Shown here: in pieces, positions 55,488-61,774 of the stretch | How the letters are laid out: the number at the start of each line of letters is the position of its first letter | Position numbering within the stretch: the stretch's first letter is position 1 | NCBI RefSeq assembly: GCF_013205025.1 | Contig: NZ_JABMLE010000005.1 | Location: forward strand, 62,001-126,000 | DNA length: 64,000 bases | Direction of reading: 5' to 3' | Origin: Rathayibacter sp. VKM Ac-2857 | GTDB taxonomy: Bacteria > Actinomycetota > Actinomycetes > Actinomycetales > Microbacteriaceae | Program-made: the position numbers and the translations under genes | The notes under the pieces: generated by a model | The model's database searches: none | What the model was told of the DNA's origin: nothing | What the model saw: the letters and a program-made list of their open reading frames with translations, nothing else

Positions 55488-58103
55488 GTGCCAGAGACGA
55501 CGTCCACCCCCGTCGGTGCAAATTGGATTCGCGCTGCCCTGCAGGTGAACCCGTACGCGTACCAGGGGCGTAACGCTCCATCAGGTTTCTTTGAAGACGA
55601 GGCCGCCTACAATGAGGCGCTGCTGAACGAGTGTGAATCCTTGGGTATCGCTCTCATTGCCGTCACGGACCACTGGAGCGTCGACTCGGCCGCCGGTTTG
55701 ATCGTCGCCGCAAAGGAAAAAGGCATCACTGCCCTTCCCGGATTTGAGGCGAACTCATCTGAAGGTGTTCACATTCTTGTGATCTTTGACGCCGGTACGG
55801 ACTTTTCGTCAATCAATGCCTCGATTGGACGATGCGGGGTCAGACCGAACTGCAGCAACGGAACGACGGGCGAGCCATACTCGATCATCCTTCAGCGAAT
55901 GACGGAGGACGACGCCTTGGTCATCCCGGCGCACGCCAACGTGCAGCCAGCAGGCTTGCTCACCACGCGCGCCGGCCAGCCCCTCGCCACGATGATTCAG
56001 GCTCCTGATCTACACGCCATTGGTATCACGCCAACGGTCGCCGAGACGCGCGACCAAGCCGCCGTCGTCGGCGGCACGGGAATTTTCGCTCGCCCTCATC
56101 CCCTTGCCGTGATTCATGCAGATGACGTGATGGGACCTCGTCAGTTGCGCACAGACGGAGCAAGCTCCTGGTTCAAGGTCAGCGCACCCACCCTGCGCAG
56201 CCTGAAGCTTGCAGTTCGCACGCCAGCAACCCGCATTTCTGTCACGAATCCGAGAATCGAGCCGCGCACGACGATCAAGAGCGTGTCGTGGGTTGGCGGG
56301 TACCTCGGCGGGGTCACCGTACCCGTCTCCGACGACCTCACCGCATTGATCGGAGGTCGCGGTGCTGGTAAGTCGACCATCATCGAGAGCATCCGCTACG
56401 CGCTTGCGCTGGAGGCTCTTACTCCGCAAGTAAAGGCCGACCACAAAAATATCGTCTCGTCTGTTCTGCGCGGAGGGACGATCATCCGCGTCGAGATCGA
56501 AGCGGTGAACCCAGTTTCACAGCGCTTTACAATCGAACGAGAGGTCCCTCATCCTCCTGTCGTGCTTGACGCCGCTGGATCCCGGACCAACCTGACGCCC
56601 AGTGAAGTTCTTGGGCCTGTCGAGATCTTCGGACAACACGAGCTGGCTGAGCTGGCCGGCAGCACCGAACGCGTCGCCGAACTGGTCCGCCGTTTCGACG
56701 GTGAACTCGACGACGACGCTAATCTGCAAAGCACGCTTCGACAGCTTCGGACGAACCGCGAGGACCTGATCCGAGTCGAAGAGGCTCTCGATGACCTCGA
56801 CGGGGAGCTCGCTCGCATCCCTGGGCTAACCGAACAAGTCGGGCACTGGGAAGCAACCGATGTCCCCGCCAAGCTCGCAGGGCAACAACGCCTCGGACGC
56901 GATGACGCCATCTTCGAGGAGGGCGCCAGCCGAACAAGCGCCGTTACTGACGAGTGGACGCGGTTTGTGCAGGCTCATGCACTTCGCAACCTAATCGTGC
57001 CGCTCGCCGACATAGACGGCGCGCCCCAACAGCAACACCTGGTTCGAGTCGTAGATGCTCTCACTCGACTGCAGTCACGTACGACCGAGATCTCTAGCTT
57101 GATGAGCGAAGCGCTGGCCGAGGCACGCGAAGACATCGGGGCCGCTCGCGCCGATTGGCAAGCTGCCACAGCGGATGAAGCTTCGTCCTATGGGGAGGTG
57201 GTGCGAGAGCTTCACGAGCGAAAGCTGGACCCTGACCGATTCGTCGCGATCCAGCAGGAACTGGACAGGCTGCAAGCGGTGGAGCCCCGCAGAGCTAGTC
57301 GGAGAAAGGATCTTACGAGCCTCCTGGCTCGGCGCGAAGCTCTTCTTGACGAACTCCGAGCACACGAGACGCGGCGCACCGAACACCTCCACGCCGCCAT
57401 CGGAGCGGCCAACAGAGCGACTGGCGGAGTCGTCGTCGCGCGCCCCATTACGGCCTCGGATCGCACCCATATTCTTGACGTAATCAAACCGTACATCGCC
57501 ACTCAACGCACCCAGATCACAGCGGCGATTGCAACTGATAATTTTTCTCCCCGTAGCCTCGCAGCAGCCATTCGGGAAGGCTCCGACGCCCTGAATGCGA
57601 TGGGAATCCGAGGGGCCCAGGCAACTGCGCTTCTCACCGCCGGCGAGCGACTAGCCCGCGAACTCGATGAGTTGCGCATCGAATTGGCGGTGGAGGTTCT
57701 GCTCCAAGTCGACGGCACAGGTCTTCGCTCGATGGATCAGCTGTCCAAGGGTCAGCGAGCCACCGCCCTGCTGCTGCTGCTGCTCGCGGCGTCAAATGCC
57801 CCCCTCATTATCGATCAGCCAGAGGACGACCTCGACAACAACTTTGTCTACCGGGGAGTGGTCACTAAGCTTCGTCAACTCAAGGGGCGACGGCAGATCA
57901 TCGCCAGTACCCACAACGCTAACGTTCCCGTGCTCGGTGACGCTGAACTGATCGTTGCTATGCAAAGCGATGGTACGCACGGCAGGCCGTCTCCGCGTGG
58001 CATTGGCTCGCTTGATGACGCGGCGATCCGAGTTCTCGCCGAGAACATCCTCGAGGGCGGACCGGCTGCATTCAACGCCCGTCAGCACCTCTACGGCTTC
58101 TGA
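55488..58103 (+). CDS. TrlF-like PHP-domain ATPase
   Basis: This 871-residue protein starts with GTG at 55488 (AAGGAG four bases upstream). Residues 15-230 form a PHP-type metal phosphoesterase: AVTDHWSVDSA near 59 and IPAHANVQ near 150. An SMC/RecF-like ATPase follows: Walker A GGRGAGKST near 290, a coiled-coil and linker region (about 400-650), signature LSKGQR near 752, Walker B PLIIDQPEDDLD near 773 and STHNAN switch near 810. This is the architecture of TrlF-family proteins, often found in defence islands. The likely role is a DNA- or RNA-triggered nuclease/phosphatase; substrate unproven. Confidence 0.8.
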   Translation: MPETTSTPVGANWIRAALQVNPYAYQGRNAPSGFFEDEAAYNEALLNECESLGIALIAVTDHWSVDSAAGLIVAAKEKGITALPGFEANSSEGVHILVIFDAGTDFSSINASIGRCGVRPNCSNGTTGEPYSIILQRMTEDDALVIPAHANVQPAGLLTTRAGQPLATMIQAPDLHAIGITPTVAETRDQAAVVGGTGIFARPHPLAVIHADDVMGPRQLRTDGASSWFKVSAPTLRSLKLAVRTPATRISVTNPRIEPRTTIKSVSWVGGYLGGVTVPVSDDLTALIGGRGAGKSTIIESIRYALALEALTPQVKADHKNIVSSVLRGGTIIRVEIEAVNPVSQRFTIEREVPHPPVVLDAAGSRTNLTPSEVLGPVEIFGQHELAELAGSTERVAELVRRFDGELDDDANLQSTLRQLRTNREDLIRVEEALDDLDGELARIPGLTEQVGHWEATDVPAKLAGQQRLGRDDAIFEEGASRTSAVTDEWTRFVQAHALRNLIVPLADIDGAPQQQHLVRVVDALTRLQSRTTEISSLMSEALAEAREDIGAARADWQAATADEASSYGEVVRELHERKLDPDRFVAIQQELDRLQAVEPRRASRRKDLTSLLARREALLDELRAHETRRTEHLHAAIGAANRATGGVVVARPITASDRTHILDVIKPYIATQRTQITAAIATDNFSPRSLAAAIREGSDALNAMGIRGAQATALLTAGERLARELDELRIELAVEVLLQVDGTGLRSMDQLSKGQRATALLLLLLAASNAPLIIDQPEDDLDNNFVYRGVVTKLRQLKGRRQIIASTHNANVPVLGDAELIVAMQSDGTHGRPSPRGIGSLDDAAIRVLAENILEGGPAAFNARQHLYGF

Positions 58104-58343
58104 GGCTCCGGAGCGGATCGGTCGTACCTAGGTTGCCGCCGCGCGGACGTGTCTTTTCCCGACCTGAAGGAGCCGTTGCTCCGAGCGGATACACCGCTCC
58201 ACCCCAGTTCCTGAAGAGCAGCCGGGTGCTGAGCAGGAGACCCACCGGCGGGAGTCCAGCGGCTGCTTCATTGATCGATAGAATACCGACTTACAAGGCA
58301 CTAGGACTTTGCGGTGCAACGATATGGGAAACGGAACTACGCA

Positions 58344-59528
58344 ATGTCGACAACTGGTAACCAGTCAACTAATCTGAACGCGGCGAAGGCGGCTAAGAAG
58401 GACGAATTTTATACTCAATGGGCCGACATTGAGCGCGAGATGAACGCTTACCTCGAATACGACCCTGACGTATTTCGCGGAAAGACAGTACTCTTGCCAT
58501 GCGATGACCCCGAGTGGAGCAACTTCACAAAGTTTTTTGCTCTGCACTTTACTGATTATGGCATCAAGAAGCTTATATCAACGTCGTTTGCCCCGGATAG
58601 CAACCCGTCGTTATTCAGTTACGAGCCCACACTTTTTGAGCTGAACAACCCGCAGTTCGACCAAACCAAAACGCACGCTAACGGAAAAAAGTTCATTTTG
58701 GAGCGCAGGGATGTCAACGCGGATGGCGCGGTAAACATCGACGACCTGCAATGGAATTACCTCGAAGGTGACGGAGATTTCCGAAGCGCAGAAATAACGG
58801 CTTTGCGCGACGAAGCCGACATTGTAATCACGAATCCTCCATTCTCGCTGTTTCGCGAGTTCGTAGACTGGCTCACAAAAGGCGGCGTGAAGTTCTCAAT
58901 TATTGGCAACCAAAACGCTGTGGCTTACAAAGAGGTTTTTCAGCAAATCAGGACGAACAAAGTGTGGCTAGGAAAAGGGTTTAAGGGCAACGTCGCCCAT
59001 TTCGCAAGTCCATATGAAGATATTGCGACGTCCGGAGACAAAGAGGAGGGGATGATTCGCGTGTCTGGAGTAATGTGGTTTACAAACCTGGAGCACGGGC
59101 GCAGACATGAGCCTCTTCAGCTCATGACAATGGCCGACAATCTGAAGTTCAATAAAAAGCTTCTTTCCACGCTCGACGGCGGGACGCAATATCAGCGGTA
59201 CGACAATTTTGATGCAATTGAAGTCCCATTTACCGACGCGATACCCTCGGACTATTCAGGTGTTATGGGAGTTCCTATCACATGGCTTGCTAAGTACAAC
59301 CCCGATCAGTTCGAGATCTTAGGAACCGACGAATCTGACGTTGTCCCCACAAAGACGTATCGTGCCAAGGGTAAAGTAGTCGATGGTCTCCCCGTAAAGT
59401 CCAATACGGGATCTGGTGGAGCCTATATCAGAACTGAGTCATACGGATCGGGTACCTTTTTCGATGTCGGCTACCCAGTGAAGAGAATGTATAAAAGAAT
59501 CTTCATCAGTCATCGAGGGGAACTCTAA
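58344..59528 (+). CDS. EcoRI-family adenine-specific DNA methyltransferase
   Basis: This 394-residue protein shows [16 protein letters not shown] near 20, the SAM-binding-type [12 protein letters not shown] near 50-60, and catalytic [11 protein letters not shown] near 161-170 (NPPF). These are the marks of EcoRI-type N6-adenine methyltransferases. The ATG at 58344 (MSTTGNQ) is preferred to the GTG at 58314; the ribosome site is weak. It is much AT-richer than the surroundings. It overlaps the DUF262-HNH gene (TAATG). No EcoRI-like restriction enzyme is present. Confidence 0.85.
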
Positions 59529-60694
59529 TGAAGACTGAACTCAGACATTACACGGTTGGGGAAGTCGTTGAGGGTTTCGTGTATAACGAACTCGAAGGAA
59601 AGGGGCTCTTCGGTCTGGACGGGAGGCTAGTAATTCAGCCAGAGTACCAGCGGAACTACATTTATAACGACGGCAAGCGGGATGTTGCAGTAATAGAGTC
59701 TATGCTGAAGGGCTACCCGCTTGGGCTAATATATTTCAACGTCAATGGCGAAACGTTCGAAGTGCTGGACGGGCAGCAGCGCATCACGACTATTGGCCGC
59801 TTCGTGACGGGCAAGTTTGCAATAAAATTACACAACAAGGAACAGACCTTTTCGTCGCTGGCGGCGGATTTGCAGAATATGATCCTCGCCACAAGACTTG
59901 ACATCTACAGCTGTGACGGCAGTGAAGCCGAAATTAAGCAATGGTTCGAGACTATCAATATAGCTGGCGTGCCTCTGAATAAGCAGGAGTTACTCAACGC
60001 CATCTACTCAGGTAGCTTTATAACAAAAGCTAAAGCTGAGTTCAGTAACTCAAATAGCGCTAAGTTGGTCAAGTGGCAGTCCTTTATCTCAGGTGACCCT
60101 AAGCGACAGGAGGTACTGGCCGAGGCGCTGAATTGGGTTGCGTCGTCATCAGGTATCTCCGTCGATTCCTACCTAGCTCAGCATCGTCATGATGATAATA
60201 TCACTGAGCTAAAGGCATACTTCACTTCCGTCATTGATTGGGTTAGTGGAGTATTTACGCGCTCCCCTGATAAGGAGATGCGCGGGCTAGAGTGGGGGCG
60301 GTTGTACGAAAAGTGGCATTCGAAATCGTATAGCGCGGCCGCCATTGATGCAAAGGTTCAAGAACTGCGCGACGATCCCTACGTGTCGTTGAAGAGGAAT
60401 ATCTACGAATTCGTTCTCGGGGGAGAAAAGGCAACTCAGCTTCTCGCGCTCCGACTTTTCGACGAGAAGACTAAGTCGCTTGCTTACAAGTCGCAAACGA
60501 ACGAGGCCAAAGCCAAAGCTGCCTCGAACTGCCCGTACTGCGCTCTAAGCAACAACGCCAACAAAACACGCCTTTGGAAGATCACTGAGATGGATGCGGA
60601 TCACGTCACGGCTTGGTCCAAGGGCGGTAAGACCGACTTGGCTAACTGCGAGATGCTGTGCGTGCCGCACAATCGCTCGAAGGGCAATAGGTAG
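59528..60694 (+). CDS. DUF262 and HNH domain protein (GmrSD-like nuclease)
   Basis: This 388-residue protein has a ParB/sulfiredoxin-like DUF262 domain (about 10-230) with IQPEYQRNY at 36-44 and LDGQQR at 80-85, and a C-terminal HNH nuclease (335-388). That nuclease has [24 protein letters not shown] and PHNRSKGN, giving two Cys pairs and the DH...N...H catalytic set. It is coupled to the methyltransferase gene and shares its AT-rich composition. The nuclease most likely attacks DNA lacking or carrying the partner's mark. Confidence 0.85.
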
Positions 60695-61162
60695 GCGCAC
60701 TGCTCCAAGGCGCCTAGCACCATCGCCGGCAAGGTGAAAGATCTCTGGCGCGACTTACTGTAGGCGGGCCATGACATCGGAGGCATTCGGTCTTCTGAGT
60801 TGCGGCAAGCGGTACGTAGCTGCGTAAAGCGGTACGGCTTCGTTTTGGCTCTCATTCCTGAAGATGCATGGCGTATTGGTGGTTGGCGCGTAGCTTCCGT
60901 TGCTCTGGGCTGGCGCGAGGCTGCCGGTCTCGAAACTGTGGCGCGCTACCGCGCGGGGCGACGGCTGTTGGCACTTGTTGCAGGTCGGTCGCCATTTGCT
61001 GGCTGCCTCGCAAAACATTAGTTTTTCGAGACAGACCGGCGAGAGCCGATTCGAGTTCGACTGCCGCCGTCACGTCGAAGGTCTCTCTGTCTCGATAACG
61101 TGTCTCGTCGGACTTTGTCTCAGGAGGGTGCCCGGAGGGGCTTCCCGAGTCAGAATGTGCTC
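60695..61162. other. gene-poor junction
   Basis: Base composition returns from AT-rich to GC-rich here. No complete gene is supported; short frames have no ribosome sites. It may be the edge of the inserted defence genes. Confidence 0.45.
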
Positions 61163-61774
61163 GTGAGGCTTCTCGGTTATACGCGTGTGAGTACGTCGAG
61201 TCAGGACGCGCAGTTGCAGCTCGACGCGCTCGTCGCGGCCGGCGTGCAAAAGCGCGACGTGTTCGCGGATGTGACGTCTGGCAGTAAGACCGCGATCGAG
61301 CGGCGCGGGATGGAAAAGCTGCTCGAGTACGCCGAGGAAGGGGACACCGTCGTCGTCTGGCGAGTAGACCGCCTCGGCCGGTCACTGATCGACGTCCTCA
61401 ACACGGTGAACCTGTTGCGTGAGCGAGGGGTGCAGGTCCGGTCGATCTCAGACGGCATCGACCCGTCGACGTCGACGGGCCGGCTGATGCTGAACATGCT
61501 TGCCACGCTCGCGGAGTACGAGCGGGAGCTCATCGTCGAGCGAGTCAACGCCGGCATCGCCGCCGCACGTGCGCGTGGAACCCGCTTCGGCCGGCCCCTG
61601 TCAGATCCTGCGGTGGTCGCAGACAAGCTCGCGATTGCTGCGGACGCGCGATCGCGTGGGCGCACTGCTGAGGATGCTGCTCGTCTCGTCGGGTGGAGTC
61701 GTCCGTCGCTCTATCGCCATCAGGCGGACGCCGCTCGCCGCGCAGCTGCGGGAGAGCAGGCAGCCTCCCAGTAG
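61163..61774 (+). CDS. serine recombinase (resolvase/invertase family)
   Basis: This 203-residue protein has a resolvase catalytic domain: LLGYTRVSTSSQD with the nucleophilic Ser near residue 10, VWRVDRLGRS near 66 and ATLAEYERELIVERV near 115. A helix-turn-helix follows (RTAEDAARLVGWSRPSLYRH). GTG 61163 or 61157 is the likely start; no strong ribosome site is visible. Such enzymes resolve transposition cointegrates or invert DNA. It stands at the border of the defence island, next to gene fragments. Confidence 0.8.
   Translation: MRLLGYTRVSTSSQDAQLQLDALVAAGVQKRDVFADVTSGSKTAIERRGMEKLLEYAEEGDTVVVWRVDRLGRSLIDVLNTVNLLRERGVQVRSISDGIDPSTSTGRLMLNMLATLAEYERELIVERVNAGIAAARARGTRFGRPLSDPAVVADKLAIAADARSRGRTAEDAARLVGWSRPSLYRHQADAARRAAAGEQAASQ

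What the first reader, a model, noticed from the sequence alone, without database searches (positions are those of the whole stretch)
55488..60694. Candidate defence island: TrlF-like PHP-ATPase, EcoRI-type methyltransferase, DUF262-HNH nuclease
The methyltransferase and DUF262-HNH genes overlap and are distinctly AT-rich in a GC-rich region. No classical restriction enzyme is present, so the DUF262-HNH protein is the natural restriction partner of an EcoRI-type adenine mark. Directly upstream is a PHP-domain/SMC-like ATPase of a type seen in defence islands. A three-part system, or two adjacent ones, of this composition is not one I can name.
Basis: partly seen in the sequence, partly recalled or inferred. 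Interest (0 to 1): 0.78.

Follow-up and report, generated by a model that had tools for sequence, protein, structure and literature searches.

The report
Restriction system with swappable DNA-reading parts
Two overlapping bacterial genes, a DNA-marking enzyme and a DNA cutter, form a widespread defence pair in which the marker's DNA-reading segments are swapped like cartridges while the cutter stays the same, so the marker probably tells the cutter where to cut.

Summary
TrlF (55488-58103) is an independent neighbour. The EcoRI-type methyltransferase (MT, 58344-59528) and the DUF262-HNH nuclease (RE, 59528-60694) are a near-obligate pair: an MT was found with RE in 76 of 80 genome and 73 of 79 viral loci, and the 10 misses lie at contig ends; 38 of 38 loci in a Bacteroidaceae sample. 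PADLOC files RE as a Type II enzyme, yet it does not look orthodox. Among 178 distinct pairs, two MT segments (v2, v3) fall into 27 and 56 groups at 50% identity, in 117 combinations; of 17 locus pairs with REs at least 95% identical, only 3 share both groups. No RE column follows the groups. In 8 EcoRI-linked MTs, v2 is at least as conserved as the core. Nine loci hold spare v3 cassettes inverted; 7 of 9 also hold a tyrosine recombinase, against 2 of 168 others. Best reading: a restriction-modification system whose MT supplies, and can switch, the specificity of a constant nuclease. No experiment or structure model supports it yet.

The parts
58344..59528 (+). EcoRI-type N6-adenine DNA methyltransferase (MT); GTG 58314 is an alternative start
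   Evidence: PF13651 381.6 bits; catalytic NPPF invariant in 146 of 146 homologues
58710..58748 (+). EF-hand/dockerin-like loop in an insertion of the MT (residues 123-135)
   Evidence: Pattern found in 122 of 178 nuclease-linked MTs and 0 of 8 EcoRI-linked MTs; role unknown, candidate docking element (inference)
58833..58844 (+). MT catalytic motif NPPF (residues 164-167)
   Evidence: Invariant in 146 of 146
58974..59075 (+). v2, first exchangeable segment of the MT (residues 211-244), putative target-recognition cassette
   Evidence: 27 groups among 178 pairs; this group is shared with ten other loci, Bacteroidales and viral ones among them; more conserved than the core in EcoRI-linked controls
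59325..59525 (+). v3, second exchangeable segment of the MT (residues 328-394, C terminus), putative target-recognition cassette
   Evidence: 56 groups among 177 pairs; this group is shared with an Arthrobacter plasmid, Mycolicibacterium and two viral contigs
59528..60694 (+). DUF262-HNH nuclease (RE), 388 aa
   Evidence: PF03235 + PF01844; PADLOC REase_II PDLC03418 281.6 bits over residues 12-387
59768..59782 (+). DGQQR motif of the DUF262 domain (RE residues 81-85)
   Evidence: Invariant in 146 of 146; proposed NTP-binding role from PMC4619093 (passages)
60530..60688 (+). HNH nuclease domain with CxxC...C residues (RE residues 335-387)
   Evidence: C335, C338, D358, H359, C378 invariant in 146 of 146; N382 in 145
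55488..58103 (+). TrlF-family PHP/SMC-like ATPase: a neighbour, not part of the pair
   Evidence: NF045780 427 bits; near the pair elsewhere in 1 of 80 and 1 of 79 loci only, as weak C-terminal hits

Best explanation
MT and RE form one restriction-modification system in which the methyltransferase carries the sequence specificity for both activities. MT reads DNA with two exchangeable segments (v2 and v3), methylates its own sites, and directs or licenses a constant DUF262-HNH nuclease, which uses NTP binding in its DUF262 domain to control HNH cleavage of DNA whose sites are unmethylated. Exchange of v2 or v3 (by recombination between lineages, by an invertible cassette array with its own recombinase, or by repeat-length slippage) re-targets marking and cutting together, so the cell never faces a cutter that its marker does not match. 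SHOWN by sequence comparison: the pairing, the exchange of v2 and v3, the constancy of RE, the spare cassettes. INFERRED: that v2 and v3 contact the target, that RE takes its specificity from MT, that the two proteins form a complex, NTP control of cleavage, and that the arrays really invert in cells. The window copy has no spare cassette in the 14 kb around it and is probably fixed in its present state.
For: (1) Pairing: an MT in the locus in 76 of 80 genome loci and 73 of 79 viral loci; the 10 misses have 0-425 bases of contig upstream; 38 of 38 in a Bacteroidaceae sample; RE starts between 25 bases before and 20 bases after the MT stop in 144 of 178. (2) Cassettes: L021/L022 REs 99.7% identical, MT core 96%, v2 25%, v3 27%; L096/L097 REs 99.7%, core 94%, v2 29%, v3 15%; DNA identity of the gene pairs falls from mostly 83-100% to lows of 27-50% at v2 and v3 and returns in RE. 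(3) 178 distinct pairs: 27 v2 groups, 56 v3 groups, 117 combinations among 177; RE at least 95% identical: 3 of 17 locus pairs share both groups; RE 85-95%: 14 of 79. (4) Pairwise identity of the MT core tracks the three RE regions (r 0.81, 0.69, 0.78), v2 and v3 do not (r 0.10-0.12); no RE column follows the groups above a label-shuffle null. (5) Control: in 8 EcoRI-linked MTs of the same Pfam family (six plasmid and two viral loci) v2 identity averages 0.79 against core 0.71, and the v3 body is conserved. (6) Switching: extra cassettes in 17 of 177 loci, inverted in 9; what is resident v3 in L096 and in L259 lies silent and inverted in L029 (94% and 83%); a recombinase like that of L029 (PF00589) in 7 of 9 such loci against 2 of 168. 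(7) Tandem repeats (unit of two or more bases) at the v3 junction: 6 in 37.4 kb against 11 in 1914 kb elsewhere. (8) MT interrupted or mostly missing with RE intact, not at a contig end and without N runs, in L026, L114, L148, L151 and L261.
Against: That v2 and v3 are target-recognition segments rests on position, the EcoRI control and cassette behaviour. Groups were made by single linkage at 50% identity: some chain, and some singletons may be diverged members of one type. In the EcoRI control v3 averages only 0.57 because tails differ. Locus pairs with close REs share groups more often than those with distant ones, as descent predicts, and the mean RE identity is slightly higher for pairs sharing a group than in the shuffles (0.004 against -0.002, sd 0.003, for v2; 0.011 against 0.003, sd 0.005, for v3). 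Of the 7 inverted-cassette loci with recombinase, four (L029, L096, L097, L259) are close copies of one locus, so independent cases are fewer. Nine E. faecium plasmids have 100% identical RE DNA; the three whose MT I looked at carry one MT protein, and two A. kunkeei plasmids are identical in both proteins: no switching there. In the Pediococcus/A. kunkeei comparison v3 and RE change together (RE 76%). Interrupted MTs may be assembly errors, and loci were selected by a good RE match. The repeat window in (7) was chosen after seeing examples; a wider count showed little (0.050 against 0.043 per kb). One MT without RE exists (G327).
Confidence: 0.68

Rival explanations
1. Orthodox Type II system: RE reads its own fixed sequence and MT merely protects it; the MT segments vary for other reasons (for example escape from phage inhibitors) without changing the motif.
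For: Two separate adjacent genes; PADLOC files RE as REase_II; the PF13651 family contains the MT of EcoRI plasmids. Some plasmid populations show one fixed pair, and in one comparison v3 and RE change together.
Against: Near-identical REs sit with different v2 and v3; in EcoRI pairs the same segments are conserved; no RE column follows the groups; spare inverted cassettes with a recombinase; intact RE next to interrupted MT in five loci.
Confidence: 0.15
2. Mark-sensing logic as in SspE: RE reads no sequence at all but senses N6-methyladenine (any context) through its DUF262 domain, which sets NTP hydrolysis and HNH activity; MT only writes the mark and its motif may drift freely.
For: DUF262 proteins SspE and GmrSD respond to DNA modification (PMC10952713 and PMC4619093, passages); this would also explain free exchange of v2/v3 with a constant RE.
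Against: N6-methyladenine is common in bacteria, so a context-free sensor would misread self and foreign DNA (general knowledge, not tested here).
Confidence: 0.12
3. Three-part defence system of TrlF, MT and RE.
For: The three genes lie on one strand in one stretch of lower G+C.
Against: TrlF-like hits near the pair in 1 of 80 and 1 of 79 loci, both weak and C-terminal; TrlF without the pair nearby in G004 and G814.
Confidence: 0.02

Closest known systems
EcoRI R-M system (orthodox Type II)
   Same: Same methyltransferase family PF13651; some nuclease-linked MTs carry an EcoRI-like v2 or v3 cassette.
   Different: EcoRI's nuclease gene precedes the MT gene in the five annotated loci seen, and v2/v3 of its MT are conserved; here the nuclease is DUF262-HNH and the segments are swapped.
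Type III (Mod-Res) and Type I (HsdS) systems
   Same: Works like them: specificity lies in MT or S and can change by moving recognition domains, by inversion or by repeats while the nuclease stays constant (PMC3983042 and PMC7394358, passages).
   Different: The conserved module is two small genes, neither of them a helicase-type Res/HsdR nor an HsdS; the nuclease is DUF262-HNH. Wider neighbourhoods were not scanned for Res, HsdR or HsdS.
GmrSD / BrxU / SspE (DUF262-DUF1524 nucleases)
   Same: DUF262 domain with invariant DGQQR plus a His-Me finger type nuclease (PMC4619093, passages).
   Different: PF01844 HNH instead of DUF1524; constant partner methyltransferase; only weak sequence similarity to the solved DUF262 protein 7p9k (E 0.031).
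PADLOC REase_II model PDLC03418
   Same: Near full-length match of RE, 281.6 bits over residues 12-387; so the RE has been filed before as a predicted Type II restriction enzyme.
   Different: The filing says nothing of the partner's exchangeable segments; the features found here argue against orthodox Type II.

Membership tests
Orthodox Type II R-M | Separate methyltransferase and endonuclease genes side by side | tested here: met
Orthodox Type II R-M | Endonuclease recognises the target by itself, so the MT's recognition part must stay matched to it | tested here: not met
   Comparative test only, no assay: 14 of 17 locus pairs with REs at least 95% identical differ in v2, v3 or both; EcoRI-linked control conserved
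Orthodox Type II R-M | No nucleotide cofactor needed for cleavage | not testable with these tools
   Invariant DGQQR suggests NTP binding
Type III R-M | Specificity in the methyltransferase, shared by the nuclease | tested here: inconclusive
   Supported by cassette exchange with constant RE, not shown biochemically
Type III R-M | Res subunit with helicase and PD-(D/E)XK domains | tested here: not met
   RE matches DUF262 and HNH models only
Type I R-M | The conserved module contains a separate HsdS with two recognition domains, and HsdR | tested here: not met
   The pair holds neither; its two variable segments lie inside MT. Other neighbours were not scanned for them
GmrSD-family Type IV | DUF262 domain with DGQQR | tested here: met
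GmrSD-family Type IV | DUF1524 nuclease domain | tested here: not met
   HNH PF01844 found; DUF1524 not among the Pfam matches up to E 0.1
GmrSD-family Type IV | Cleavage depends on modified DNA | not testable with these tools
   No assay
BREX | PglX with PglZ, BrxC and other core genes | not tested
   No specific search was made
TrlF family (neighbour) | NCBIfam NF045780 above its cut-off | tested here: met
   427 bits against 350

The most novel reading that the evidence does not exclude
A distinct restriction-modification architecture: a single EcoRI-family methyltransferase with two independently exchangeable, in some loci switchable, recognition cassettes acts as the specificity subunit for a constant NTP-controlled DUF262-HNH nuclease, so that any cassette pair gives a matched marker and cutter. 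It combines Type I-like two-cassette grammar and switching with only two small genes, and is spread over many phyla and phages under the label 'Type II'.
Probability: 0.55. Interest if true: 0.87.

Novelty: new variant of a known kind. Interest (0 to 1): 0.76.

Why it matters
Orthodox Type II systems are defined by a cutter that reads DNA on its own, which freezes their specificity. A two-gene system that re-targets marker and cutter together by swapping two short cassettes (v2 21-46 residues; v3 30-80 residues in 170 of 178) would show how a family filed as Type II changes specificity freely, would mean that such annotated 'Type II restriction enzymes' are misfiled, and would make a cassette code testable by long-read methylomes: the v2 and v3 groups give predictions (for example an EcoRI-like v2 in 12 loci). 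RE was found in 41 of 301 genomes sampled from the family of Phocaeicola massiliensis, so switchable methylation from it could matter in gut bacteria. It would also be a compact scaffold for nuclease targeting.

Tried and rejected
TrlF as third component: rejected. Empty insertion site of the window locus in 15 genomes of the genus (own genome included): the flank searches gave scattered partial matches and no clean empty site; repeats around the island gave no convincing attachment site. Promoter/terminator scan of 57900-61300: 0 promoter-like sites and 1 weak terminator-like site inside MT, uninformative here. MT-RE gene fusions: 0 of 178. Simple repeats over the whole MT-RE interval: little difference from elsewhere; only the junction window is enriched (post hoc). 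Solved structures: no useful relative for MT; weak ones for RE (4h9d HNH E 0.0024, 7p9k DUF262 E 0.031). My note that L112 carries both EcoRI-type cassettes was wrong: the printed sequences show its v3 is only chained into that cluster; no locus of the 146 has both. Likewise L161's v2 is only chained into the EcoRI-like group, leaving 12 of 13. Literature: ten searches of the held library listed no paper on this pair or on cassette exchange in PF13651; most subscription papers, bioRxiv preprints and REBASE pages were out of reach.
Full report
WHAT IS THERE. The window holds, on the + strand, a TrlF-family ATPase gene (55488-58103), an EcoRI-type adenine methyltransferase gene (MT, 58344-59528) and a DUF262-HNH nuclease gene (RE, 59528-60694), which begins on the last base of the MT stop codon. 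Family matches: TrlF NF045780 427 bits over a cut-off of 350; PF13651 381.6 bits for MT; PF03235 78 and PF01844 30.4 bits for RE. PADLOC matches RE over residues 12-387 with its REase_II model PDLC03418, 281.6 bits. G+C is about 0.49 over the pair, 0.60-0.62 over TrlF and mostly 0.64-0.75 around. A serine recombinase gene follows (61100-61774, PF00239).

TWO SYSTEMS, NOT ONE. These are close members of the RE subfamily (58-72% identical in genomes, 35-64% in viral contigs); other DUF262 proteins, such as the 27%-identical ones that make up most of the 664 plasmid records, were not examined for partners. An MT-like gene was found in 76 of 80 and 73 of 79 loci; in one of these, L114, only the last 100 or so MT residues remain. 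In all ten misses the contig ends 0-425 bases upstream of RE. TrlF-like hits occurred in 1 of 80 and 1 of 79, both only in the C-terminal ATPase part. The same-genus genome G004 has TrlF at 76% DNA identity and no MT or RE in the 19 kb fetched around it. In a sample of 199 family genomes 2 had a strong TrlF match, the window's own and G814; G814 shows no MT or RE in the 1.5-kb flanks. TrlF is therefore a neighbour.

HOW TIGHT AND HOW WIDE IS THE PAIR. In 301 genomes sampled from the family of Phocaeicola massiliensis (G410; Bacteroidaceae, name recalled), 41 have RE at E 1e-100 or better, 42 matches in all. I fetched 38 of the 42 loci (left out: the L029 locus already held, one further match, and two partial ones); all 38 have an MT upstream on the same strand, in L261 in two frames and in L285 cut by the contig start. 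Among 396 Actinomycetota genomes 11 have PF13651; RE is adjacent in 8 (one at only 26% identity); of the other three, one MT lies at a contig end, one is in fragments with no RE in the 1.5-kb flanks, and one (G327) is an MT without RE on its 10.4-kb contig. The pair also occurs on plasmids and in a phage: Arthrobacter, Apilactobacillus, Sulfitobacter, Enterococcus, Pseudarthrobacter, Pediococcus, Flavobacterium phage laban6-1. Of 178 distinct pairs, RE begins between 25 bases before and 20 bases after the MT stop in 144, in two RE comes first, and none is fused.

CONSERVED MOTIFS. In 146 pairs the motif DGQQR, the HNH residues D358 and H359, the cysteines C335, C338 and C378 and the MT motif NPPF are invariant; N382 is kept in 145. 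The roles of DGQQR and of the D-H-N residues are taken from the GmrSD literature (PMC4619093, passages; PMC10952713, passages).

THE SURPRISE: CASSETTES IN MT, CONSTANT RE. RE has no hypervariable stretch; MT has variable stretches at residues about 81-130, 201-240 and beyond 320. The last two, v2 (window residues 211-244) and v3 (328-394), behave as cassettes. L021 and L022 have REs 99.7% identical and MT cores 96% identical but v2 25% and v3 27%; L096 and L097 have 99.7%, 94%, 29% and 15%; L029 and L096 share v2 but not v3. DNA alignments of six locus pairs show identity falling at v2 or v3, in the five pairs that differ there, to lows of 20-50% and returning in RE; in the closest pairs the flanking parts are mostly 83-100% identical, and L022/L035, which share both groups, show no such drop. 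Clustering at 50% identity gave 27 v2 groups and 56 v3 groups in 178 distinct pairs (146 + 38, six identical ones dropped), with 117 combinations among the 177 pairs that have both. Of 17 locus pairs with RE at least 95% identical, 6 share the v2 group, 9 the v3 group and 3 both; of 79 pairs at 85-95%, 27, 32 and 14. Pairwise identities of the MT core correlate with those of the three RE regions (r 0.81, 0.69, 0.78), those of v2 and v3 hardly (0.10-0.12; 146 pairs). In 141 distinct pairs no single RE column follows v2 or v3 group above a null made by shuffling labels within RE clusters (largest effect 0.11 against a 95% limit of 0.16 for v2; 0.17 against 0.19 for v3); the mean over columns is slightly above the null (0.004 against -0.002, sd 0.003; 0.011 against 0.003, sd 0.005), as shared descent would give. 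The window's v2 group is shared with ten other loci, among them L021 (Bacteroidales), and its v3 group with an Arthrobacter plasmid, Mycolicibacterium and two viral contigs.

THE CONTROL. The same MT family also partners the EcoRI nuclease. Nineteen plasmid records and two viral loci matched it. I used eight pairs (E. coli L186, K. michiganensis L193, K. pneumoniae L197, Leuconostoc L188, Staphylococcus rostri L194, Rhodococcus L195, viral L191 and L192). Two further EcoRI-type plasmids were fetched and left out: L196, scanned without a PF13651-like hit, and L198, whose gene is annotated as another kind of methylase and was not scanned; the remaining records, mostly near copies, were not fetched. 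In the eight, mean identity is 0.79 for v2 against 0.71 for the MT core and 0.71 for the nuclease; v3 averages 0.57 because C-terminal tails differ, while its body (FRKGxDxKDLSINGK.PYFRILIKNK) is conserved. So where the nuclease is known to read the site itself, v2 and v3 stay fixed; where the partner is DUF262-HNH they are shuffled. This is the main reason to read v2 and v3 as target-recognition segments and to doubt that RE reads a site of its own. EcoRI-like v2 cassettes occur in 12 of the 146 nuclease-linked MTs (13 clustered; L161 only chained in) and EcoRI-like v3 in three, L065, L067 and L075; none has both.

SWITCHING MACHINERY. Outside the resident MT gene, 17 of 177 loci carry extra v2- or v3-like cassettes; in 9 a spare v3 cassette is inverted. 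In L029 two inverted spares match the resident v3 of L096 (94%) and of L259 (83%), while its own resident v3 is of a third group; these three loci have REs 98-99% identical. The segment FEILG just before v3 is encoded by a core, TTTGAAATCTTAGG, that recurs at spare cassettes in L096, L259 and L055; that pattern found only the resident copy in L029, L097 and L260 and none in L133, but a shorter pattern found inverted copies in L029, L096, L097, L259, L055 and L260 and the inverted-repeat search found them in L029, L096 and L097. A recombinase like that of L029 (PF00589) lies in 7 of the 9 inverted-cassette loci and in 2 of 168 others; four of the seven are close copies of one locus. Two loci (L120, L124) have a second MT gene with other cassettes. 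Tandem repeats with units of two or more bases lie at the v3 junction in 6 loci (L017, L043, L086, L094, L123, L137): 6 in 37.4 kb against 11 in 1914 kb elsewhere, p about 5e-7, but the window was chosen after seeing examples, and a broader count gave 0.050 against 0.043 per kb. The window locus itself showed no spare cassette in 14 kb.

HOW IT MOST LIKELY WORKS. In an orthodox Type II system a change of the MT's reading part leaves unprotected sites that the unchanged nuclease would cut. Here such changes are frequent and in some loci apparently built in, so the nuclease must take its specificity from MT or have none. The most economical model is an MT-guided nuclease: MT binds its target through v2 and v3; if the adenine is methylated nothing happens; if not, RE together with MT, gated by NTP in its DUF262 domain, cuts with its HNH domain. 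Among 188 loci that hold both genes RE is complete in 188, while MT is incomplete in 15; most of these lie at contig ends, but in L026, L114, L148, L151 and L261 MT is interrupted or mostly missing away from contig ends and without N runs (L017 changes frame at its repeat, and L095 lacks a match to the first 35 positions). That fits a nuclease that is harmless without MT, but assembly errors and the choice of loci by RE weaken it. A mark-sensing model like SspE is the main alternative within the same frame. An MT insertion with an EF-hand-like loop is found by a pattern in 122 of 178 nuclease-linked MTs and 0 of 8 EcoRI-linked ones (the pattern was tuned on the first set) and is a candidate docking site for RE.

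RESULTS THAT DO NOT HELP. Nine E. faecium plasmids have 100% identical RE DNA, and the three whose MT I looked at carry the same MT protein; two A. kunkeei plasmids are identical in MT and RE; a Pediococcus plasmid shares the A. kunkeei MT almost exactly through v2, then has another v3 and an RE only 76% identical, so there v3 and RE changed together. The structure jobs never completed.

WHAT IS KNOWN. Movement of recognition domains is described for Type I HsdS and Type III Mod (PMC3983042 and PMC7394358, passages) and within Type I specificity genes of H. pylori (PMC3077401, search listing only). Reviews seen in passages (PMC12707154; PMC10952713; PMC4081073) describe DUF262-DUF1524 nucleases and HNH Type II enzymes; the passages shown do not mention a DUF262-HNH nuclease partnered with an EcoRI-type MT. 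A survey of invertible loci (PMC5903667, term search and passages) does not hold the words EcoRI, DUF262 or methylase in its main text. Ten searches of the held library listed no description of this pair. PADLOC already files RE as a Type II enzyme, so the single gene is not new; the pair's cassette behaviour and what it implies appear undescribed in what I could search.

VERDICT. I rate it a new variant of restriction-modification with MT-borne, exchangeable specificity, at 0.68 confidence for the mechanism in outline.

Noticed in passing
window 58710-58748 and homologues: MTs linked to DUF262-HNH carry an insertion with an EF-hand/dockerin-like loop (pattern in 122 of 178), not found in 8 EcoRI-linked MTs.
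   Followed up: partly
L029 7127-7978; L059: Between MT and RE, L029 carries a Bro-N (BRO family) gene and L059 another gene of about 350 codons.
   Followed up: no
L120, L124: Two MT genes in tandem with different v2/v3 upstream of one RE.
   Followed up: no
G327:C50 (L297): MT without RE, with open frames of similar sequence on either side of it.
   Followed up: partly
L195 5206 onward (Rhodococcus pyridinivorans plasmid): An EcoRI system is followed by another DUF262 protein gene.
   Followed up: no
window 61100-61774: Serine recombinase (PF00239) just downstream of the pair; possible mobility gene of the island.
   Followed up: no
L298 8184-11087 (G004): The relative's TrlF lies in a stretch whose first open frame looks like a conjugation ATPase; judged by eye from open frames only.
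   Followed up: no
L300 (A. kunkeei A1805 plasmid 2): The MT-RE stretch is annotated as several short open frames, unlike the two sister plasmids; possibly sequencing errors.
   Followed up: no
G000:C2:812286-812471: A second DUF262-like stretch in the window's genome, 45% identical to residues 33-93 of RE.
   Followed up: no
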